Origin: a virus
Reading direction: 5' to 3' (one strand)
DNA: 21,922 nucleotides
Virus record (IMG/VR): IMGVR_UViG_3300033064_006333
Location: 1 to 21,922 of that record
In this document: positions 7,580 to 21,922 of the stretch, piece by piece
How positions within the stretch are numbered: the first letter of the stretch is position 1
Layout: the number at the start of each line of letters is the position of its first letter
Program-made: the position numbers and the translations under genes
The notes under the pieces: model-generated
Told to the model about the DNA's origin: nothing
The model's database searches: none
The model's input: the letters and a program-made list of their open reading frames with translations, nothing else

Positions 7580-9499
7580 ATGCTAGAACAATCATTTGTA
7601 GATTCCTATTCTCAAAAATCGGCCCCATGGGGTTTTAACGGGCTCGGAGAAATTGTATTCATGCGTACATACAGCCGCAAAAAAGAAGATGGGCTGAATG
7701 AAACATGGTCCGAAACATTGCAACGAGTGATTAATGGTGCCTTAGAAATCGGGGTTCCATATACGGACGAAGAAGCAAAAACTCTTTTTGACCATATGTT
7801 TAATTTGCGATGTTCTTTTTCCGGACGTTCTCTCTGGCAGTTGGGTACACCTTTGGTTAAAAAATTAAATGGCACATCTTTAAATAATTGCTATTTTACA
7901 AATATTGAAAAAATTGAAGATTTTGAAATGATTTTTGAGTACCTGATGCTTGGCGGTGGGGTTGGTTTTTCGGTTGAACGCTCCAAGATTCACGAACTTC
8001 CTAAAGTTATCTCTGATGTCAGTATCACCCAAGAAAGAACAAATGATGCCGACCTGATTGTCCCAGATTCACGTCATGGTTGGAAACGACTTTTACACGC
8101 AGTCTTGAAATCATATTTTTATACTGGTAAATCATTTTCTTATTCCACAATTCTCATCAGAGAGTACGGCGCACCACTGAACACTTTCGGGGGTACTGCA
8201 TCAGGGCCCGGTGCACTCATCGATGGGATTAAAGATATTTGTGGCGTAATGGAAAACCGAGTAGGAAAGAAATTACGCTCTATCGATGTTCTAGATATTT
8301 GCAATATTATTGGTCGGATTGTGGTTTCTGGTTCATCTCGTCGCTCAGCGCAAATTGCAATGGGCGACCCCGATGATGTACTTTTTCTCCGAGCAAAAAA
8401 TTGGTCATCGGGGACAGTTCCTGCGTGGCGCGCTAATTCAAACAACAGTATTTATGCTGATTCGTTTGACGAGATACAACCAGAACTATGGAGGGGCTAT
8501 GACGGCACAGGAGAGCCGTACGGCTTACTTAACCGTAAGTTGGCTCGGAAGTATGGCAGACTAAATGAATTGAAACTAGACCCTTCTATTGAGGGCTTCA
8601 ACCCATGTGCAGAAATCGGCCTTGGGGACGGCGAGTCCTGTAACCTTGCAACAATTTTTCTCCCAAATATTGACTCAATTGAGCAACTAAAAGAAATTTC
8701 AATTTTGCTTTATAAAACACAAAAACAAATTACTCAACTTTCCTATTCTTATGAAAAAACGACCAAAATCGTTCATCAAAATGCTCGCTTGGGTCAATCG
8801 GTTACCGGCATTCTTCAAGTTAGTGAAGAAAAAATTGACTGGTTGTCTGAGTGTTATTCTTTTTTAGAAAAGTTTGATAAAGAATATTCAATAAAAAATA
8901 ATTTGCCGGTTTCGGTCCGTCTTACTACGGTTCAGCCGTCAGGGACTCTTTCACTATTGCCCGGGGTGACACCAGGCATTCACCCTGCTTTTGCTCAACA
9001 CTACGTGCGCCGAGTTCGCTTTGGTTCGTCTGACCCACTTGTTGATGTTTGCCGAAAGCGGGGACATAAGGTTCAATGGGACGTTGGTCTTGACGGTAGA
9101 GAAGACCACACTCGATTTGTTGTTGATTTTCCATGCATGTCCCCAGAAAACTCGGTCTTAGCAAAAAATATGTCGGCCGTTGACCAGTTGGAATGGGTAA
9201 AAAAGATGCAAACAATTTGGGCAGACAATGCGGTTTCGGTAACTGTTTACTACCGAAAAGAAGAACTTGAAACAATTAAAAATTGGCTAGATAGAAACTA
9301 TACAAAAAACATCAAGTCGGTTTCTTTTCTTCTTCACGCCGACCATAATTTCATTTTACCTCCTTATGAAGAAATAACGGAAGATGAATACAAAAAAATG
9401 TCTTCCAAAATTGATTCATCAATCCCTTTGGTCCAAAAATCTTTTGATGGAGACATAGAGATTGACGACTGTGCGACAGGAGCATGCCCTATCCGCTAG
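7580..9499 (+). CDS. nrdJ: Adenosylcobalamin-dependent (class II) ribonucleotide reductase
   Basis: This 639-aa enzyme reduces ribonucleotides to deoxyribonucleotides for phage DNA synthesis, using adenosylcobalamin to form a thiyl radical. All five key Cys of the Lactobacillus-type monomeric reductase are present: Cys104 (NNCYF) and Cys354 (ESCNLA) as the active-site pair, Cys343 in NPCAEIG as the radical Cys with Asn341 and Glu345, and Cys631/Cys636 in the C-terminal CATGAC for re-reduction. The 11-residue gap between Cys343 and Cys354 and the 5-residue gap at the C-terminus match that enzyme. The TTVQPSGTLSLLPGVTPGIH block is also typical. It is about 100 residues shorter than the 739-aa enzyme. 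GGGGAAG precedes the ATG. The tRNA follows 12 nt after the stop. Confidence 0.95.
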   Translation: MLEQSFVDSYSQKSAPWGFNGLGEIVFMRTYSRKKEDGLNETWSETLQRVINGALEIGVPYTDEEAKTLFDHMFNLRCSFSGRSLWQLGTPLVKKLNGTSLNNCYFTNIEKIEDFEMIFEYLMLGGGVGFSVERSKIHELPKVISDVSITQERTNDADLIVPDSRHGWKRLLHAVLKSYFYTGKSFSYSTILIREYGAPLNTFGGTASGPGALIDGIKDICGVMENRVGKKLRSIDVLDICNIIGRIVVSGSSRRSAQIAMGDPDDVLFLRAKNWSSGTVPAWRANSNNSIYADSFDEIQPELWRGYDGTGEPYGLLNRKLARKYGRLNELKLDPSIEGFNPCAEIGLGDGESCNLATIFLPNIDSIEQLKEISILLYKTQKQITQLSYSYEKTTKIVHQNARLGQSVTGILQVSEEKIDWLSECYSFLEKFDKEYSIKNNLPVSVRLTTVQPSGTLSLLPGVTPGIHPAFAQHYVRRVRFGSSDPLVDVCRKRGHKVQWDVGLDGREDHTRFVVDFPCMSPENSVLAKNMSAVDQLEWVKKMQTIWADNAVSVTVYYRKEELETIKNWLDRNYTKNIKSVSFLLHADHNFILPPYEEITEDEYKKMSSKIDSSIPLVQKSFDGDIEIDDCATGACPIR

Positions 9500-9511: not shown

Positions 9512-9584
9512 GCCCTTGTGGCTCAATGGATAGAGCAACAGACTTCTAATCTGTAGGTTGCAGGTTCGAGCCCTGCCGAGGGCG
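9512..9584 (+). tRNA. tRNA-Arg (anticodon UCU)
   Basis: A full cloverleaf can be folded: acceptor GCCCTTG/CGAGGGC (one G-U pair), D stem GCTC/GAGC, anticodon stem ACAGA/TCTGT with loop CTTCTAA (anticodon TCT at 9545-9547), five-base variable loop, and T stem GCAGG/CCTGC with TTCGAGC. The discriminator is G84, and CCA is not encoded (GCA follows). It reads AGA, a codon that GC-rich hosts use rarely. It lies 12 nt after nrdJ without a terminator between, so it is probably processed from the same transcript. Confidence 0.95.
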
Positions 9585-9602
9585 CAATTTATTAACTGTG
9601 TA

Positions 9603-11129: not shown

Positions 11130-11375
11130 TTAAACTTCGATAAAAATACATTCACCTGGACACTCTTCGGCAGATTCAACAACGTCACCAAGGCGGTCTT
11201 CTGCGAAAAATGCTAAACCGCTTGCGCCTTCCTCGTTCCCTCGCAGTTTGGAAAACACTTTCCCATTCTCTTGGACGTACGCCAACCCATCCTCCAGCAT
11301 GATGAATACATCTGGGGCTATTTCCGCGCACAGGCCATCTCCAGTACATAAGTCTTGGTCAATCCATACTTTCAT
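11130..11375 (-). CDS. Single-cluster ferredoxin
   Basis: The 81-aa product begins VWIDQDLCTGDGLCAEIAPDVF, with Cys10 and Cys16, and ends AEECPGECIFIEV, with Cys72 as third ligand. The spacing CxxDxxC...CP puts Asp13 where the fourth ligand of a [4Fe-4S] cluster would be, as in Pyrococcus furiosus ferredoxin, which also carries Asp there. A [3Fe-4S] cluster is the alternative, as in actinobacterial ferredoxins that serve cytochromes P450. It is a small soluble electron carrier, and the partner in the phage is unknown. The class II RNR normally uses thioredoxin. It follows the 122-aa gene by 7 nt, and no Shine-Dalgarno site is visible. Confidence 0.88.
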   Translation of the reverse strand: MKVWIDQDLCTGDGLCAEIAPDVFIMLEDGLAYVQENGKVFSKLRGNEEGASGLAFFAEDRLGDVVESAEECPGECIFIEV

Positions 11376-13008: not shown

Positions 13009-13416
13009 CTATTTTTTATCGGTTTTGAATTCGACCCATGTTTTATCACCAATACCGAAGTACTCACGTGCATATCCAGCCTGAATTATGTCGATATTTA
13101 GACAAGCGGTTGTTGGGTCGTCTACATTGTCTGAACTGAATATTCTTGCAAGAATGCGACCGTATTTATCGTTTTTGTCTGGGATTGTGTTAACAAAAAC
13201 CCATTGATGTTTAGTGAGCCAGTCTTCTGTGAATTTTTTAGCCTTTAGACCAAGTTCTTTTTCTGCAAGGTCTTTTGTGCGTGATTCTGGTGTATTTAAT
13301 CCATATAGGCGCACACGCATCTTGTGGTGAATATTGAAACCTAGGTCAACCATAAGTTCGACGGTGTCGCCATCAACCACTTTAAGGAGTTTTGCGCCAT
13401 ACCAAAATCTTTCCAT
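13009..13416 (-). CDS. Thermonuclease (staphylococcal nuclease-like)
   Basis: The 135-aa product is a complete SNase domain: KVVDGDTVEL (Asp17 of the calcium site), VRLYGLNTPE with Arg36 and Glu44, and DKYGRILARIF with Arg87. These match catalytic Arg35, Glu43 and Arg87 of the S. aureus enzyme. The calcium ligand Asp40 is replaced by Asn41, so activity may be reduced. There is no signal peptide, so it acts inside the cell or in the virion. Its ATG overlaps the restored stop of the DUF6321-like gene as TAATG, so the two are coupled. Confidence 0.9.
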   Translation of the reverse strand: MERFWYGAKLLKVVDGDTVELMVDLGFNIHHKMRVRLYGLNTPESRTKDLAEKELGLKAKKFTEDWLTKHQWVFVNTIPDKNDKYGRILARIFSSDNVDDPTTACLNIDIIQAGYAREYFGIGDKTWVEFKTDKK

Positions 13417-14582: not shown

Positions 14583-15899
14583 TTAGGCTGGAGCGTTGTT
14601 AAAGTAAACCTTCACAAACGACTCTGGGCGCTTGACGGCAAGGGCGAGACGTTGCTCGGCCAAGATGACAATTGCGTTACGAATGAAGAAGTCTGCATGC
14701 TGTTCGCTAATGCGAATGCTTGCTTGTTCACGGTCGTAGATTTGTGCACCCGTACCAAATGCACCAACAAGTGCATATGATTCGGTCATTGCTGGTGTCT
14801 CAACGATTGGAAGACGCCATACTTTTGGCTCGCCACCCATTGCTACTGAAAGAGCAATCAAGTATTGGCCATTGCCGTCTTTTGTCAATTCGATTGATTC
14901 CCAATCGTTTGGATGGAGAACAACACCAGATGGCTCGTAGTAAGCAAGGTATGACAAGGTTGCTGCACGACGAATCGCATCAGCCTTTGTGTCTGCCTTG
15001 CCGTTTGCGGCTTCGTTTGCACCCATTGACCAACTGTAGGTCTGAACACCTGTGGTGTTCATGATGCCAGTGAGGTTTTCACCACTTCCTGAACCGTTGA
15101 GGATTTGTGCATCCTCTTGAAGGCGAAGGCCGTACATCAACTCGTTGTCGATAATTGAACGCAACTGTGGCTCATCTGCAAGAACGTTGCGATGGGCTGC
15201 TTCCCAGTGTGCAAGTGTGCGGACCGAAGTCTGTACACCTTCAAATGACATGCTTGACTGTGGCTTAGCAGCAAACGCTGTATCTCCAGCATTGCGCTCT
15301 GCAACCATGGCTGCGTTATTCGTGAAGCCAGTCATGCGGAAGTACTCAATTACTGTTGATGTTGTTGTGCGAACTGGGAACAGGTCACGAACACGCTTTG
15401 TGCGCATTGGTGGAATCACCATTGGGTCACGTGTGATTGTGCCGAACGAACCAGGAGTGCCTGATGGCATTGCTGTGTAAACATCTTTTACACTGTAATT
15501 GCCGGTTGTGAGTGTGTGGCCAACTTGGAATGCTGCTGGCATGTTTGCACCGCCACTAGCGATAAGTGACTTGTACTCATTTGAGGCAAGAAATGCTTCA
15601 CCAACTGATGAAAGTTGTTTTGCTGGGATTGCAAAACCAGCGGCTGCTGCTGCTGCAACAGACTGTCCGCTCGCTTGTGAGCCCCAATTTTCAACTTCTT
15701 CCATTGATTCAAGACCTACGATGAGGTTCTTGATTTCTTTGATGTCAACCATGTTTTTGTCGAATGAGGACTTTTGCTCCGAACCAACAACGACTGTGCC
15801 GTCAACAACTTTGAATGAATCTGCAATTGCTTTATTATCTGCCATTTTTGTACGAAGTGCTGTTTGCAGTTCGCTTAGGCGTGATGTGTCTTGTGACAT
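14583..15899 (-). CDS. HK97-fold major capsid protein
   Basis: The start at 15899 is chosen because AAAGGAAAA precedes that ATG; the frame runs open to 16007 but the extra residues look unlike coding sequence. Residues 1-70 form a charged helical region like the delta/scaffold domain of HK97 gp5. After an Ala-rich linker comes the capsid domain: GSFGTITRDPMVIPPMRTKR (about 150-169), the E-loop region, SMSFEGVQTSVRTLAHWEAA, and ILNGSGSGENLTGI (about 266-279), which is the diagnostic motif of the family. The 438-aa product builds the head shell. The usual maturation protease gene is not next to it; the two giant proteins take that place. A strong terminator follows. Confidence 0.93.
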   Translation of the reverse strand: MSQDTSRLSELQTALRTKMADNKAIADSFKVVDGTVVVGSEQKSSFDKNMVDIKEIKNLIVGLESMEEVENWGSQASGQSVAAAAAAGFAIPAKQLSSVGEAFLASNEYKSLIASGGANMPAAFQVGHTLTTGNYSVKDVYTAMPSGTPGSFGTITRDPMVIPPMRTKRVRDLFPVRTTTSTVIEYFRMTGFTNNAAMVAERNAGDTAFAAKPQSSMSFEGVQTSVRTLAHWEAAHRNVLADEPQLRSIIDNELMYGLRLQEDAQILNGSGSGENLTGIMNTTGVQTYSWSMGANEAANGKADTKADAIRRAATLSYLAYYEPSGVVLHPNDWESIELTKDGNGQYLIALSVAMGGEPKVWRLPIVETPAMTESYALVGAFGTGAQIYDREQASIRISEQHADFFIRNAIVILAEQRLALAVKRPESFVKVYFNNAPA

Positions 15900-15949
15900 T
15901 TTGTTTTCCTTTATATAGAATTTGGACTTTGATACCTGGCTAAGGTAAG

Positions 15950-15987
15950 CACCCAGCCCTATCATCAAAATTAGCAGGGTGTTTTTT
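15950..15987 (+). terminator. Plus-strand terminator-like hairpin upstream of the capsid gene
   Basis: CACCCAGC (15950-15957) pairs with GCAGGGTG (15974-15981) with one mismatch, and six Ts follow on the plus strand. No plus-strand gene precedes it. It may block antisense transcription into the giant-protein genes, or be a leader hairpin of the capsid transcript when read on the minus strand. Confidence 0.5.
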
Positions 15988-16048: not shown

Positions 16049-18526
16049 TTAAGGCCACTTACGTTTGTAGTATTCAAGATTTTTAACACCCTGTGGAGTA
16101 ACTCTTCCACCAGTTGACCATGACATAAATTTTTGCTCATCATTTACCGAAAATACACCATTTTCTACTTTGGCTATCAATTTAGGAGCAGCACCAAAAG
16201 GTACGTCGTTGTCCCATAGAAAAAAACTTCCGATTTGTTTATCTTTTAGATATTGGGTCATCATGTTGTATGAGGTGTTTGCAATGTGGGGCAAAATATG
16301 ACTTGCAACTTTCCTACCATCAACTTTTTCTCTATCATCAAGTCTTTTTTGGGCAATTCCTGGGTTAACATATGCCGCGTGCGCGATTGTTTGATACCGC
16401 GGGTCATTGGTTGTTTTGTATTCCGGTAAACGTGTTCCGGTTCCTTGGGTAACTATATCCATTCCCTGTTTGCTAGCCTGCGAAACAACGTCTGTTGCCG
16501 TATGTGCCGATTCCCTATGAACACTTATTGCTCCAGTGCCAGAATCGTAACCATCAAGTGCTTGTTTGATAAAGTCTGGGTCAATATGGGCGGCTTCAGT
16601 CTCTGTGGGTATTAGCCCACGTTTGGCAAGAAAATCGGTCAATGTTGTTTTCCCCATGCCGGGAGCACCAACAATAAAATAGTGTCGTTTTTCCCCATCT
16701 GGCTTAATGCTCTCTGGGTTAACTCTTTCAAGGATGATTTCAGAAACACGTTTTGCACCAATATTTGTAATTGTGTTTATGTTGGTTCTAGAACGAACAC
16801 CCCTATTGTCTCCTGAATATCTTGTATAAAATTGCTTTAATAAACGCCAATCTTTATCCGAAAGCATTTGGTCTTTGTCAAATTTTACAACCAATGAGTA
16901 AGGGACAACAAAGTTCGGGCGCGCGCGACCCCAATCAAGGTAGTGAATTTTTGTTGATGGAGGCCAAGTATCTGGAGAGTCGGCATTTGATTGAGACAAA
17001 CGCCTACGTGGCCTCTGTGATGACTGTAAGCCAGTTGCCTTGGTTGACGATTTACCAATTAAAAGAATATCAATTTCACTATCGGTCATTCCGATATCTT
17101 TTAGTTTTTTGATTATTGCATCCATCGAATCTTTGCGAATATCACGTTGTGGTATCGGTACACCACGCTCATCTCTTTGAATCATGCCATCACCACGAGC
17201 CATTGACTGACGGGCTGAACCAGACTGAGAACGTGTCCCTCGCACTGAAGGTGTTGGTGGAACTAAAGAATTTCTTTTTACCCCACTTGAGTAAGCAGAT
17301 TGCGCTCCCTGTCTTGTGATTCCAAATTTTTTAGCAATTTCATCAAAACCCATACCTTGAGAACGTAATTTCATAATCTCTTCGGTTTGTTTACTTATTG
17401 GCCTACCTCTACCAACTTTTTCTGGTGGTACGTCAGTCTCATAAAACATCGGCCAAATATTGCTCGGGTTTATCCCAAGTACGTTTACGGCAAGTCTGTC
17501 GGCGGCATACGTATCTAAAGATGCGTCAACTTCATTCATTGCGTCAAATACTTCTGTTGAAACACCAAGTGTTGTTGCTTTTTGTTCACGGGTAAGTCCA
17601 CGAAGAAAACGCATATTAAGAATATTTTCAGCCTTGAATGGGCCACCTTTTTTAATGTCGGAAAGAGAAACCTGTGGTGAAGTAAATGGTTTTTTAACTG
17701 CATCAGAATCTAACGGACCGGGTTTCCCAGAACGCAGTCCACGTACAGGGGCTGGCATTTCTCTCCATGTGCCATCAAAAATTAAACCATCGTTGTCCAC
17801 GTCTCTTCTTTTACGTGGGTCTAATTCCCCAGCAATCTCAGACATTACTCGACTCGTTGTTCTTTTTTTACTTGGTGTTAATGCACGCCCAATGCGTGTA
17901 CCAATACCTTTTGTTTCATGCAATTCTTCAAATAAGGATTTTTTACGACGATTAAGTTCTTGTCTTACAATAGTTCTTATAGCCCTATTGCCCGTTTCTC
18001 TTTGATTCCTTCTACCTAGTGCAGTAGTCCCAGCCAATCTTGCGTAATCTGTATTGTTTGTACATGGCATCCATACCAATTTTCCACTTTGCGATGACAG
18101 TCTGCGTACGCCGATACACCCAAGTCTTACTGAGCGTTTTCGGGCAGATTCAATATCCGTATAAACATCATCGTCGTTATCACGAGGAGAAAGACCAGGA
18201 ATAATCCCCTTAACCGAAGTGATTGGGGCAGAGACAATACCTCCACCAACTAGGGTAGAGAATCCTAATGGGGTTGATTCTCTAAGGTTCTCCCACTGTT
18301 TTCTTTTACTTTTTTTATTTCGTTTTTTAATGTTTTTTTCAATATCGCTCAGCGCTGTTTTTTTTCCAGGTTCTGCCTGTCTTGATATCCGTAACAGTTC
18401 ATTATGGGTTGCGCATGGCATCCACTTACCATCTTCGCCTTTATGGGCACCACTACAACCAATCCATTGTGCAGCCCTAAGGGCAAAGACTTTTGAATTT
18501 GTATTTGTTTTTTCTGTTTCGGTCAC
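16049..18526 (-). CDS. 825-aa multidomain protein with zeta-type kinase domain
   Basis: The start is GTG (18526), 12 nt after the 133-aa gene. Domains in order: two related Cys modules (Cys24...WMPC38 and Cys137...WMPC155); a calcium-loop-like stretch DVDNDGLIFDG (Asp242, 244, 246); a helix-turn-helix-like region (GRGRPISKQTEEIMKLRSQG, FDEIAKKFGITRQG, 372-407); and a C-terminal P-loop kinase with GAPGMGKTT (620-628), HIDPDFIKQAL (648-658), HRESAH (670-675) and DIVTQGTG (690-697). The last set matches zeta toxins and related kinases that phosphorylate UDP-sugars or nucleotides. Arg/Lys-rich linkers join the parts. Its place before the capsid gene suggests a virion protein or injected effector; this is inference. 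Confidence 0.75.
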   Translation of the reverse strand: MTETEKTNTNSKVFALRAAQWIGCSGAHKGEDGKWMPCATHNELLRISRQAEPGKKTALSDIEKNIKKRNKKSKRKQWENLRESTPLGFSTLVGGGIVSAPITSVKGIIPGLSPRDNDDDVYTDIESARKRSVRLGCIGVRRLSSQSGKLVWMPCTNNTDYARLAGTTALGRRNQRETGNRAIRTIVRQELNRRKKSLFEELHETKGIGTRIGRALTPSKKRTTSRVMSEIAGELDPRKRRDVDNDGLIFDGTWREMPAPVRGLRSGKPGPLDSDAVKKPFTSPQVSLSDIKKGGPFKAENILNMRFLRGLTREQKATTLGVSTEVFDAMNEVDASLDTYAADRLAVNVLGINPSNIWPMFYETDVPPEKVGRGRPISKQTEEIMKLRSQGMGFDEIAKKFGITRQGAQSAYSSGVKRNSLVPPTPSVRGTRSQSGSARQSMARGDGMIQRDERGVPIPQRDIRKDSMDAIIKKLKDIGMTDSEIDILLIGKSSTKATGLQSSQRPRRRLSQSNADSPDTWPPSTKIHYLDWGRARPNFVVPYSLVVKFDKDQMLSDKDWRLLKQFYTRYSGDNRGVRSRTNINTITNIGAKRVSEIILERVNPESIKPDGEKRHYFIVGAPGMGKTTLTDFLAKRGLIPTETEAAHIDPDFIKQALDGYDSGTGAISVHRESAHTATDVVSQASKQGMDIVTQGTGTRLPEYKTTNDPRYQTIAHAAYVNPGIAQKRLDDREKVDGRKVASHILPHIANTSYNMMTQYLKDKQIGSFFLWDNDVPFGAAPKLIAKVENGVFSVNDEQKFMSWSTGGRVTPQGVKNLEYYKRKWP

Positions 18527-18538
18527 TTTATTTAAGCC

Positions 18539-18940
18539 CTAGCCAAGAGTAAGTTTTCTACAAGCCCCAATTGGGTCCCCCGGAAAACGTTTTTGCCAAA
18601 GACGTGCTTCCCCTAACTCATCAGAAAATTTTTTTTCTAAAATGTCGAAAGGGTTTCCAAATACGTCTGGGTCAATTAATGAAGAATTCTGTCCTTTTTC
18701 GGGGATAAGGCTGTCAATACGTTTAAGTTCTTTTTTGAATTCATCAATAAACCTACGTCCGGTATTTGTCGTTAAGTCAAAACCCCAACGAGGTTTTTCC
18801 TTGGTACCAGAATTTTCAACATCGACAAATGGTGGAAAATCCATAATAAGTTCCATTTCGCCTCTGGTTTTGTTCCAATCCATACGCGCCGTATCGACTA
18901 TTTTTTTATCGAATTTACCTTTGTCTGTATTTGTTTCCAT
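18539..18940 (-). CDS. 133-aa protein of unknown function between the two giant genes
   Basis: TAGGGG lies a few nt before the ATG at 18940. The product is highly charged and helical (FIDEFKKELKRIDSLIPEKG) with an N-terminal strand region (RGEMELIMDFPPFVDVEN). No family is recognised. The spacing of 12 nt on both sides puts it in one operon with the giant proteins, so it may be a chaperone, scaffold or immunity partner; the sequence alone does not decide. Confidence 0.7.
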   Translation of the reverse strand: METNTDKGKFDKKIVDTARMDWNKTRGEMELIMDFPPFVDVENSGTKEKPRWGFDLTTNTGRRFIDEFKKELKRIDSLIPEKGQNSSLIDPDVFGNPFDILEKKFSDELGEARLWQKRFPGDPIGACRKLTLG

Positions 18941-18952
18941 ATTAAACCCCTA

Positions 18953-21922
18953 TCAGCCGTATTTGGCCATGATGTCGTTACGTCGATTAATTAGTGTTTG
19001 TGTCAATTTTGCTGCACGCTGCGGGTCACTTACTATTGCGGAAACAGTCGCACGGATTCTGTCATCGGCAATAGTAGACAAAGCCTGTGCTTGTTTTTTT
19101 ATTTCTGCTGAATCTATTCCCGTAAAATCAATATTACCGCCATTTTTTGCCATTGACGTCATTTCTCCAACCGTATCACCAAAGGGTGTTGATGTTGTTT
19201 CTTTTTTAGCACCTTGAGCCCTGTAATCAAGTGAACCACCAACATCTAATCTGACCGGTTTATTGTTTGAGTCAAATTTAATATTGTCATTCAACGCAGC
19301 ATCCCAGTTAGCCAACCATGCATCTGCAACAAAACCTGCGCGTGCAGCGTCTTGGTCGGAACTACTATTTGGCATTCTTGCCGTAATCATTCGGGAAAGC
19401 ATTCTTGGCTCACCAGACCTGTCACCCATGGATAAATCCGCAGCCTGAACTCCAGCCAATTGATAGAGTTTCGATGCAAGAACTTCGGTTTCCATCCGTT
19501 CTATGGCTTGCGGTAATGGTTCATTTGGTTTTGGTTTTTTTGCATAATACTGAGAACCGTCTGGCGCTGTTAACAATTCTGCTGGGTTTGACCCTGTTGA
19601 GAATGTTGGCTTACTGGATTTCCATGAAGATGTATCGACTGCATTTTGTGACACCGCATTACTTGGCTGAGTCGGCGAATTACTGGTTTGTGTTTTACGC
19701 CTTACGGTGCGTGGTTTTACTCTTGACGATTTTGTAGGTTCAACATCTACGGCTGCACTTACAGTATTTTTCTTCTTCCACTTATTCCAAGTCTTAACAA
19801 CCCCGCCGCTCATTTCTTCTGCGTCTTTGCGCGTCATCGGAGTCTGGAATGCAGCAACAATACTTCGATTATGAAGCAATATAGGGTCTTTTGATGCGTC
19901 GCCTTCGTTGGTGTCAATCGCGTCAACACCGATAATCGGCGCGAAGTTGCCAACTTCTTCATTTTTGGAAAAACGTTGTAGGTAATCAAGTGATTTTATT
20001 ATTTGAACTTTTTCTACGCTATTATCACCAGGGGTGTTTTCTAATTCCTCTAGACGCGAAATAAGTTGATTTAAAATTTGGCCGCTAATGGTTTTTGATT
20101 CTGCTAGTTGAGGTGCACCTTTTCGTGCCAATTGTGCTAGTTCTCCAGGGCTCATGGCTTCTGTCATTTCCCTTCCACCAGCAGTAACAAACTGATTATG
20201 GATTAAGGTTGACAAATTTGCCATGTCTTGTCTTTCGTTGTTCAATTCACTAGATGTCATTATCTTGGCGGATGGTGGAATCAAAACCAACATTGAGTGC
20301 CTGTCTTCTGCGCCCCCAGAATAACCAGTAAAGTTACCGCCAGGAAAAACAAAATATTCACCAACCCCATACATGCGTCCACCTTGGCCTGGGACAAATC
20401 TACCAAGACTTGTTAAGAACTGTTCAACGTAACTTTCGCTCTCTACCGCTTGGTTACCAGTTCCTCTAACGACTGGCTGCCAACCAGCGTCAAGCAGACT
20501 TTGTACTTCGTCTTTGGTAACCAAAGACGGAGTTTCCGAAAATCCAAAATTTTCCCAAAGGGTTGCAAGTAGTTTATCGTACGCTTTGTCTCCCTGTGTT
20601 TTTTTCTGCTCTAGTCTTTCGTCAAGCAGCGATAATATATTGGCAAATTGTGGGGTGATGGTAACTTTTCCATCCGGAGAAATTAGAACTGGGTGTTCTT
20701 CAATTTTTCTTTGCCCAAGACTGTCTGAAAGTTCTTCTGCATTTTTGGTTTTTCTAAACTTAGACAAAACTTGTCGTTTAAATGCCGCAGTACGAAGTTT
20801 CCTTTTTTTGATTTGCTGTGCTGGGTCAAGAATGATTGGATTACGACGTCCTTCTCCTGCTGTTCTCTGACGACGAAGGTTTCTTTTTGCTGCCCTCTGT
20901 GGGTTAGTACGTAGAATTCGTGAACGCAGCGATACTTGTTTTTTATCTTTAAATTTCTTAGAACTCAAGATTGTTTCAAGCGTTTTTCGAACTTCGGGTT
21001 GAGAAGTGAATTCATCAAGGAGTGCTTCTTCTTCAACTGGTGTTAGATTTTTGCCCGCACTTAGTTTTTTTAATAGAGGTTCAGCGATATCGTTTGTTCC
21101 AGCAATGGCGTCTAGTTGTTCTTTAATAAATCTTTTATCATCACTAGTAATCGATTTTGCGGCATCTTCGGATGCTTTTCTATCTTCTTTGTTTAAGCCA
21201 GCGCCAACGCCAAAGACTGATGATTCTGTTTTATCAGTAAAATTTTTAACTTTCTTAAACGAAGGGTCGGAACTAAGTGCATTTAAGATTGCCTTTTTTT
21301 CTGGTGGATGCAGATGTTCGAGTAAGGAGAAATTATTGGTTTCCTGCATATTCATCAAAAGGGTTAAAGTATCAATTTCTTTTTGAACTTGCCGTCTACG
21401 CTGTTGTGGTATGTCTTTGTCAATATCCAGAAGTCTCTGCATTTCGGTAATGTCACCCCGATTAAAAGGGTCATCAGGGTTACGCGGAGAGAATCGACCA
21501 CCAAGTATTGATTGTTTTTCAGCACCTCTGACCTGGGCGTTCCACCATTTAGGGAAATCTTTCGTTTTAAATTTGTCAACGATTTTTTTCTGATTAGCAG
21601 CGAGAGCCGCTTCTGCTGTTTTTCTTTGTTCTGGACTCAATGATTCCCAAAATGCACCGTCAGATGGGCCTACTTTGTCAACACCTGGGCGACGTTTGCC
21701 TTTACGTCCAGGCGACGAACTAGACGCTAATCCACGTGGGGTTGCGGCTCGTTCCGTAGTAGCAATTGCTCTTCGTGAACTTGAGTTTTGTGAACTTCGA
21801 CTTCGCCGTGGTTCGGGTTTAATCCGCGAAGGGTCAACACCAGAAAGTCTTTTTATAAACTCACCCAATCTTTTATCACCCTGGAGTTCGCCATTATTAA
21901 ATTCATCGAGGATGCCCTGAAA
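18953..21922 (-). CDS. Giant protein with ADP-ribosyltransferase-like and kinase-like regions (5' partial)
   Basis: The frame is open to the window edge (at least 989 aa); positions below count from the TTG at 21868. Residues 1-380 are Arg/Ser-rich and helical. Residues about 450-675 resemble phage ADP-ribosyltransferases: Arg468-Gly, MYGVGEYF (499-506), GVDAID (647-652) and LLHNRSIVAAF (664-674). After a Pro/Ser linker, residues about 757-950 look like a HipA/PI3K-type kinase: YYAKKPK (Lys777 or 778), METEVLASKLYQLAGV with Glu795, NWDAALNDN (Asp856, Asn860/862) and RLDVGG (Asp875) as the DFG equivalent. It may be a MuF- or Alt-like virion protein that modifies host targets; this is inference. 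Confidence 0.72.
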   Translation of the reverse strand, partial: FQGILDEFNNGELQGDKRLGEFIKRLSGVDPSRIKPEPRRSRSSQNSSSRRAIATTERAATPRGLASSSSPGRKGKRRPGVDKVGPSDGAFWESLSPEQRKTAEAALAANQKKIVDKFKTKDFPKWWNAQVRGAEKQSILGGRFSPRNPDDPFNRGDITEMQRLLDIDKDIPQQRRRQVQKEIDTLTLLMNMQETNNFSLLEHLHPPEKKAILNALSSDPSFKKVKNFTDKTESSVFGVGAGLNKEDRKASEDAAKSITSDDKRFIKEQLDAIAGTNDIAEPLLKKLSAGKNLTPVEEEALLDEFTSQPEVRKTLETILSSKKFKDKKQVSLRSRILRTNPQRAAKRNLRRQRTAGEGRRNPIILDPAQQIKKRKLRTAAFKRQVLSKFRKTKNAEELSDSLGQRKIEEHPVLISPDGKVTITPQFANILSLLDERLEQKKTQGDKAYDKLLATLWENFGFSETPSLVTKDEVQSLLDAGWQPVVRGTGNQAVESESYVEQFLTSLGRFVPGQGGRMYGVGEYFVFPGGNFTGYSGGAEDRHSMLVLIPPSAKIMTSSELNNERQDMANLSTLIHNQFVTAGGREMTEAMSPGELAQLARKGAPQLAESKTISGQILNQLISRLEELENTPGDNSVEKVQIIKSLDYLQRFSKNEEVGNFAPIIGVDAIDTNEGDASKDPILLHNRSIVAAFQTPMTRKDAEEMSGGVVKTWNKWKKKNTVSAAVDVEPTKSSRVKPRTVRRKTQTSNSPTQPSNAVSQNAVDTSSWKSSKPTFSTGSNPAELLTAPDGSQYYAKKPKPNEPLPQAIERMETEVLASKLYQLAGVQAADLSMGDRSGEPRMLSRMITARMPNSSSDQDAARAGFVADAWLANWDAALNDNIKFDSNNKPVRLDVGGSLDYRAQGAKKETTSTPFGDTVGEMTSMAKNGGNIDFTGIDSAEIKKQAQALSTIADDRIRATVSAIVSDPQRAAKLTQTLINRRNDIMAKYG

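What the first reader, a model, noticed from the sequence alone, without database searches (positions are those of the whole stretch)
16049..18526. Zeta-toxin-type kinase at the end of a probable virion protein
The C-terminal third of the 825-aa protein has Walker A GAPGMGKTT plus HIDPD and QGTG motifs in the order of zeta toxins, but no epsilon antitoxin gene is near. It sits directly before the major capsid gene. The phage could deliver a UDP-sugar or nucleotide kinase with its DNA, or use it in assembly.
Basis: partly seen in the sequence, partly recalled or inferred. Interest (0 to 1): 0.7.

Follow-up and report, generated by a model that had tools for sequence, protein, structure and literature searches.

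The report
Capsid-linked zeta kinase effector polyprotein
A freshwater-type phage, probably of actinobacteria, carries a zeta-toxin-like kinase on the end of a gene beside its capsid gene; [quoted passage not shown]

Summary
In detail: window 16049-18526 (minus strand) encodes 825 aa whose last ~240 aa are a zeta-toxin-type P-loop kinase (Pfam E 6e-11; AlphaFold pLDDT 93.9; Z 16.7 to zeta toxin, 16.4 to PezT, 14.4 to AvrRxo1). Walker A and the catalytic Asp are kept in 31 diverse relatives, under purifying selection. There is no epsilon antitoxin. But an acidic ~110-130-aa gene lies directly upstream in every zeta-bearing phage with enough flank and was found in none of 23 zeta-less records. 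A probable ADP-ribosyltransferase protein co-occurs almost as strictly. The kinase rides on a two-copy DUF3721 domain that precedes the capsid gene; in other phages that domain carries other cargo. A G-[LMA]-[RA]-S linker motif (148 seen, 23 expected) sits ~20 aa before the kinase, and most of these phages encode a prohead protease. Published virion mass spectrometry of cyanophage P-SS2 already contains a MuF-zeta protein (96.5 peptides), unrecognised. Best reading: a capsid-packaged, protease-released, injected effector kinase of the polyvalent-protein kind. Packaging is inferred for this phage. The substrate is open: UDP-GlcNAc contacts are only partly conserved. New variant of a known kind.

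The parts
16049..18526 (-). 825-aa gene: two-copy DUF3721 head-linked domain, linker with HTH-like segment, C-terminal zeta-type kinase
17882..18511 (-). N-terminal ~210-aa domain with two C-x-G-[AVI]...W-x-P-C motifs (first copy is DUF3721); directly precedes the capsid gene in related phages with or without the kinase
   Evidence: DUF3721 E 5.3e-11, two stretches; invariant C, H, W, C columns in 32 sequences; loci
17276..17398 (-). HTH-like segment (aa 377-417), weak match only
   Evidence: HTH_7 E 7.5e-4, below cut-off; kept in relatives
17723..17740 (-). linker motif GLRSGK (aa 263-268), candidate protease site; my reading, not counted by the enrichment pattern because G follows the S
   Evidence: sequence
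17015..17032 (-). linker motif GLQSSQ (aa 499-504), candidate protease site
16784..16801 (-). linker motif GVRSRT (aa 576-581), 20 aa before the kinase domain, candidate protease site
   Evidence: enrichment
16052..16771 (-). zeta-type P-loop kinase domain (aa 586-825)
   Evidence: Pfam, AlphaFold model, Foldseek and VIA matches
16643..16669 (-). Walker A GAPGMGKTT (aa 620-628)
   Evidence: G, G and K invariant in 31 sequences
16574..16588 (-). HIDPD (aa 647-651); second D equals zeta Asp67, the catalytic base
   Evidence: HMM alignment to 1gvn_B; invariant; role from PMC3062530
16436..16447 (-). QGTG (aa 694-697); equals zeta EGTG 116-119, Glu116 replaced by Gln
18539..18940 (-). 133-aa acidic small gene, strict companion of the kinase: candidate immunity protein or loading chaperone
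18953..21922 (-). upstream protein, >=989 aa, cut by the window end
   Evidence: relatives 805-2435 aa
19823..20584 (-). probable ADP-ribosyltransferase domain with a helical insert; invariant RG and G-x-G-E-Y
   Evidence: alignment, model pLDDT 88.5, VIA best full-span rows are ART toxins and PARPs, Z 5-6
18956..19690 (-). conserved C-terminal domain of the upstream protein, HipA/PI3-kinase-like by eye only
   Evidence: alignment; no library match
14583..15899 (-). major capsid protein
   Evidence: Phage_capsid E 5.6e-49; start and ribosome site

Best explanation
The gene makes a head-targeted precursor of the polyvalent-protein kind. Its N-terminal two-copy DUF3721 domain docks it in the prohead. 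The prohead protease cuts the linkers at G-x-[RA]-S sites, one lying 20 aa before the kinase, and leaves a free ~27-kDa zeta-type kinase inside the capsid. The kinase is ejected with the DNA and phosphorylates a nucleotide-type small molecule of the new host early in infection, together with a co-packaged ADP-ribosyltransferase. The small acidic protein made between the two keeps one or both enzymes quiet, or loads them, in the producing cell. Shown here: the fold, the conserved active site, the purifying selection, the capsid linkage, the strict co-occurrence of three parts, the non-random linker motif, and a prohead protease in most related phages. Inferred: docking, cleavage, injection, substrate, and the role of the small protein.
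For: Kinase; active site invariant in 31 sequences; dN/dS 0.073 against L002. Chassis next to the capsid gene with exchangeable cargo. L088 joins chassis, zeta, pentapeptide repeats, ArdC-N (4e-25) and MPTase-PolyVal (8e-43), both polyvalent-protein domains (PMC5512222). Three-part linkage: every zeta locus with enough flank has the small gene and ART; 0 of 23 zeta-less records have the small gene; the divergent zeta lineage G018/G023, nested among zeta-less capsids, has all three. Zeta-ART distances correlate beyond the capsid's (partial r 0.58, p 0.0005). Motif: 148 against 23.4 +/- 4.8 in local shuffles, reversed motif 18, residue choice consistent within a phage, 6-fold rarer inside domains, p 3e-14. 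Prohead protease in 25 of 30 related records, and protease reading frames carry the motif. Published virion proteomics: P-SS2 ORF030, 1500 aa, 96.5 peptides on average (PMC2784084), is MuF plus zeta.
Against: No particle, cleavage or enzyme data exist for this phage. The protease gene lies outside the window. About a third of the 31 zeta proteins have no linker motif near the kinase (L043, L045 and L074 among them), so cleavage there is not general or uses another site. The motif was not seen at the capsid protein's own presumed cleavage point. The co-occurrence rests on few independent gains or losses (6 changes on the best tree, 2 well-supported pairs). P-SS2 peptides are not assigned to the zeta part.
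Confidence: 0.6

Rival explanations
1. The kinase is a true UDP-GlcNAc kinase: once injected it drains the cell-wall precursor pool of the new host, slowing growth or helping lysis or superinfection exclusion, as epsilon/zeta toxins do. (This is one choice of substrate within the best explanation.)
For: Closest solved fold is zeta/PezT; Walker A, Asp67 and Thr118 equivalents kept (roles of Asp67 and Thr118 from PMC3062530). Iyer 2017 proposes wall weakening for zeta domains in polyvalent proteins (PMC5512222).
Against: The uridine-ribose contact Glu100 is T here and D, T or other in relatives; Glu116 is T, Q or E; the loop with the uracil contact Thr128 is not alignable. AvrRxo1, an NAD kinase of the same fold, is nearly as similar in structure.
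Confidence: 0.3
2. The kinase works on NAD, ADP-ribose, nucleotides or RNA ends together with the ADP-ribosyltransferase, as host takeover or to defeat a nucleotide-based defence. (The other main choice of substrate within the best explanation.)
For: Strict zeta-ART pairing and correlated divergence; similarity to AvrRxo1 and to bacterial polynucleotide kinase (Z 14.4 and 14.0); P-SS2 also joins zeta with ART-like segments (by eye).
Against: No substrate data; pairing can also reflect plain co-packaging; the ART assignment itself rests on Z about 6.
Confidence: 0.3
3. The whole protein is a structural or assembly factor and the kinase is retained for head assembly (ATP-driven or phosphorylating a head protein), not for the host.
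For: Always beside the capsid gene, and the N-terminal domain is conserved in phages without kinase.
Against: The kinase is absent in about half of the phages with the same chassis and capsid, and other effector domains take its place. This fits the N-terminal domain as head part, not the kinase.
Confidence: 0.12
4. It is a toxin-antitoxin type module of the phage (zeta plus the small gene as antitoxin) acting inside the producing cell, for example in superinfection exclusion or plasmid-like maintenance.
For: Small acidic gene directly upstream in all zeta loci with enough flank, as in TA operons.
Against: The kinase is fused to a capsid-linked domain; the small protein has no match to epsilon/PezA, sits next to the ART gene even where the chassis gene is split (G023), and ART and zeta always come together.
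Confidence: 0.12

Closest known systems
Zeta toxin of pSM19035 and PezT (epsilon/zeta TA systems)
   Same: Fold (Z 16-17), Walker A, catalytic Asp67/66, Thr118; P-loop kinase core
   Different: Fused to a head-linked protein; no epsilon/PezA; Glu100 and Glu116 not kept; different small companion gene
Polyvalent proteins of phages and conjugative elements (Iyer 2017, PMC5512222)
   Same: Multi-domain, among head genes, exchangeable effector domains; relatives carry ArdC-N and MPTase-PolyVal; that paper already lists zeta-like kinases, some fused to MuF
   Different: Chassis is two-copy DUF3721, not MuF; fixed partner set (small gene and ART); candidate prohead-protease linker sites instead of a zincin in the window protein
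MuF polymorphic toxins (Jamet 2017, PMC5576092)
   Same: Phage head protein with a C-terminal toxin-type domain
   Different: No MuF domain found
Cyanophage P-SS2 ORF030 (MuF-zeta protein, detected in virions, PMC2784084)
   Same: Zeta domain in a large head protein (profile match E 2e-26); ART-like segments by eye
   Different: MuF chassis; no DUF3721 domain, small gene or linker motif found there
Phage P1 DarA/DdrB, T4 Alt and SPN3US head proteins
   Same: Head-packaged; DarA, DdrB and SPN3US proteins proteolytically matured; Alt is an injected ADP-ribosyltransferase (PMC5512222, PMC10052503)
   Different: Other domains and another cleavage motif (SPN3US: A-x-E)

Membership tests
Zeta/PezT toxin of an epsilon/zeta TA system | Zeta-type P-loop kinase fold | tested here: met
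   Z 16.7 to 1gvn_B, 204 residues; Pfam 6.4e-11
Zeta/PezT toxin of an epsilon/zeta TA system | Walker A and catalytic Asp67 | tested here: met
   Walker A G/G/K and the Asp invariant in 31 sequences
Zeta/PezT toxin of an epsilon/zeta TA system | UDP-GlcNAc contacts (Glu100, Thr118, Arg120, Thr128) | tested here: inconclusive
   Thr118 kept in the window and in 25 of 31; Arg120 only basic or shifted by one; Glu100 replaced; Thr128 not alignable
Zeta/PezT toxin of an epsilon/zeta TA system | Cognate epsilon/PezA antitoxin encoded beside it | tested here: not met
   neighbouring small gene matches no antitoxin family in Pfam, NCBIfam or PDB profiles
Zeta/PezT toxin of an epsilon/zeta TA system | UDP-GlcNAc 3'-kinase activity and toxicity | not testable with these tools
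   needs an assay
Polyvalent proteins | Multi-domain protein with effector plus nucleic-acid-binding or structural domains | tested here: met
   DUF3721 x2, weak HTH, zeta
Polyvalent proteins | Encoded among head genes of a portal/terminase phage | tested here: met
   next to HK97-type capsid gene; protease and capsid genes in related records
Polyvalent proteins | Signature domains such as ArdC-N or MPTase-PolyVal | tested here: inconclusive
   absent from the window protein, present in homologue L088
Polyvalent proteins | Packaged and injected | not testable with these tools
   only by analogy with P-SS2 virion proteomics
MuF polymorphic toxins | N-terminal MuF domain | tested here: not met
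   no Phage_Mu_F match in the window protein at E 1, while P-SS2 ORF030 has one
ADP-ribosyltransferase (upstream protein) | ART fold and R / G-x-G-[EY] motifs | tested here: inconclusive
   motifs invariant; the full-span fold rows are ARTs but Z only 5-6, and Foldseek alone found nothing significant

The most novel reading that the evidence does not exclude
A virion-delivered two-enzyme system: a zeta-type kinase and an ADP-ribosyltransferase with one dedicated small inhibitor or loader, made as head polyproteins on an exchangeable-cargo chassis and released by the capsid protease at a repeated, phage-specific G-x-x-S code, acting in sequence on one NAD- or nucleotide-based pathway of the host.
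Probability: 0.25. Interest if true: 0.85.

Novelty: new variant of a known kind. Interest (0 to 1): 0.62.

Why it matters
Zeta kinases were predicted as injected phage effectors in 2017, but I found no demonstration. Here they recur beside one capsid lineage, paired without a seen exception with an ART-like protein and a small partner gene. The linker motif gives a direct, checkable prediction of which pieces sit in the head. Published P-SS2 virion data can be re-read at once for peptides of the zeta part. If the model holds, it shows how phages of abundant aquatic bacteria load modular effectors into the capsid.

Tried and rejected
tblastn of the whole protein against 50,697 phage records: no match; the zeta domain alone reached only distant ones. 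Cultured actinophages with the nearest capsids (Cantare, Chidiebere, DalanDe, GMA6) showed no zeta, DUF3721 domain, small gene or ART of this kind within 12 kb of the capsid gene, though Chidiebere has an annotated VIP2-like ART. The small protein, the two-copy DUF3721 domain and the upstream C-terminal domain gave no convincing PDB sequence match; the ART-like domain had no Pfam or PDB-sequence match and only modest fold matches. A MuF domain was looked for and not found. Polynucleotide kinase (Z 14.0) and adenylate kinase (Z 11.7) folds rank below zeta and cover less of the domain. The capsid tree was built with the quick method only, so counts of gains and losses are approximate. Literature searches for a zeta kinase shown in virions found none. 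DUF3721 appears in no paper of the library.

Full report
What is there. The reported frame is on the minus strand, GTG at 18526 to stop at 16049, 825 aa. Pfam finds a DUF3721 pair in the first 160 residues, a weak HTH at 372-417 and Zeta_toxin at 608-744 (E 6.4e-11). The gene lies between a 133-aa gene upstream (12 nt away) and an HK97-type major capsid gene downstream. The window is an IMG/VR record of 21,922 bases.

The kinase. AlphaFold on 31 relatives gives a confident model (pLDDT 93.9, pTM 0.91). The best solved matches are zeta toxin (Z 16.7), PezT (16.4), AvrRxo1 (14.4) and a bacterial polynucleotide kinase (14.0). In the 31-sequence alignment the Walker A G/G/K, the Asp equal to zeta Asp67, the Lys three residues after it, a His and two Arg are invariant; the alignment to 1gvn_B gives the correspondence. 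Asp67 as catalytic base and Thr118, Arg120, Thr128 and Glu100 as UDP-GlcNAc contacts come from PMC3062530. Thr118 is kept here; Glu100 is T; the neighbouring position Glu116 is Q here and T, Q or E in the family. So the catalytic machinery is intact, but UDP-GlcNAc specificity cannot be claimed. dN/dS between the window and L002 is 0.073 for the kinase, 0.027 for the N-terminal domain (synonymous sites there are near saturation) and 0.15 for the middle.

The chassis. A search with the capsid protein returned 80 related loci. In them the two-copy DUF3721 domain directly precedes the capsid gene (a few loci are too short to tell). It is present both with the kinase (about half of the loci) and without it. 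Its invariant residues are C, H, W and C in G-C-x-G-x-H ... W-x-P-C, which might bind a metal; that is my inference. Without zeta the gene is either short (about 207-245 aa, e.g. L006, L013, L069) or carries other inserts: an Arr-type ADP-ribosyltransferase (L040) and, by eye, metallopeptidase HExxH motifs (L030, L042) and a ParB-like segment (L066) (sequences). With zeta, L088 has a further pentapeptide-repeat part, ArdC-N and MPTase-PolyVal, two domains typical of polyvalent proteins (PMC5512222).

The strict companions. A family of acidic proteins of about 100-135 aa lies between the upstream large gene and the zeta gene, usually within 20 nt of both. Every zeta locus with enough flank has it, and whole-record searches found it in 2 of 25 records chosen, exactly the two that have a zeta domain. 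The upstream protein, with an ART-like domain, shows the same pattern (one short weak match in the zeta-less G007). In G023 the order is ART, small gene, first half of the chassis, second half with zeta, capsid gene; so the small gene stays beside ART there. On the capsid tree the kinase changes state at least 6 times, but only 2 independent pairs rest on well-supported branches, so the co-occurrence is strong in number and modest in independence. Distances of zeta-ART, zeta-small and ART-small correlate after removing the capsid's (partial r 0.58, 0.34, 0.49; p 0.0005 each), as a block inherited together would.

The upstream protein. The domain at 19823-20584 has invariant RG and GxGEY motifs. 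Its model (pLDDT 88.5) gives no significant Foldseek hit. The rows that span the whole domain in the second look are ART toxins (exotoxin A type) and PARPs, Z 5-6, with a helical insert matching only helix bundles. I call it a probable ART.

The linker motif. G-[LFAVMI]-[RASQ]-S-[SRTEAQK] occurs 148 times in 88 family proteins, against 23.4 +/- 4.8 in shuffles within 20-residue blocks and 18 for the reversed motif; the choice of second and third residue is consistent within a phage (0.27 against 0.11 +/- 0.02). I picked the pattern after reading these proteins, so the size of the enrichment is somewhat flattering; the reversed control and the within-phage consistency are less open to that. It is six times rarer inside recognised domains (p 3e-14), and no other frame of these loci has three or more. 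In the window and its nearest relatives one copy lies 19-22 residues before the kinase; where the kinase is internal, copies often flank it on both sides. A Peptidase_S78 prohead protease is present in 25 of 30 related records, and several protease frames themselves carry the motif. One lineage without it (L107) instead repeats [IV][AG]G[RK]M[AG] or close forms, 6 times against 0.01 expected by shuffling. Cleavage by the prohead protease is therefore a reasoned inference with precedents in P1 (PMC5512222) and SPN3US (PMC10052503). About a third of the 31 zeta proteins lack a copy near the kinase.

Delivery. The zeta profile finds large head-region proteins in unrelated cultured viruses: Phrappuccino gp57 near the capsid gene, HCTV-5 gp114 a few genes from a Mu gpF-like gene, and P-SS2 ORF030. 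P-SS2 ORF030 has MuF and Zeta_toxin domains. In the published virion proteome this ORF (17648-22147) averaged 96.5 peptides and was labelled 'major capsid protein' (PMC2784084). The peptides are not mapped to domains in the paper's table, so this supports, but does not prove, that zeta domains sit in virions.

Host. The nearest cultured capsids are from actinobacterial phages and a related phage contig sits in an Actinomycetota MAG. Actinobacterial hosts are likely, not shown.

Verdict. It belongs with polyvalent proteins and zeta-type kinases, in a variant with its own chassis, companions and linker code. It is not an epsilon/zeta toxin-antitoxin member, since the antitoxin was tested and not met, and not a MuF toxin, since MuF was tested and not met.

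Noticed in passing
window 15938-15958 (minus strand): Conserved 21-nt hairpin GGCU-GGGU-GCUU-ACCU-n-AGCC about 55-72 nt upstream of the capsid start codon; 18 distinct versions across related capsid loci, also in phages without zeta, with two-sided changes in the outer stem. No Rfam match in the window there. Possibly a leader RNA controlling capsid expression.
   Followed up: partly
L105 4624-9123 (cyanophage P-SS2 ORF030): 1500-aa protein named 'major capsid protein' or 'minor head protein' is MuF plus zeta kinase, with ART-like segments by eye; among the most abundant virion proteins in published proteomics.
   Followed up: partly
L107 30-9677: 3215-aa capsid-adjacent protein in an Actinomycetota MAG contig with a divergent zeta domain, J-domain-, NUDIX- and GNAT-like parts (by eye) and a different repeated linker motif [IV][AG]G[RK]M[AG].
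   Followed up: partly
L010 5496-11465 and L011 5334-11306: 1990-aa protein that joins a prohead protease and a DUF6321-like segment (by eye) to a long tail with repeated G-[LF]-S-S motifs: the protease itself looks like part of a polyprotein.
   Followed up: partly
window 7580-9499, 11130-11375, 13012-13416, 9512-9585: Ribonucleotide-reductase-like and small ferredoxin-like genes (by eye, no search run), an SNase-like nuclease (Pfam) and a tRNA-Arg(tct) gene in the same phage fragment.
   Followed up: no
L018 3309-5931: The zeta gene is split into two overlapping frames (411 and 466 aa) where the close relative L017 has one of 865 aa: a frameshift in the record or in the phage.
   Followed up: no
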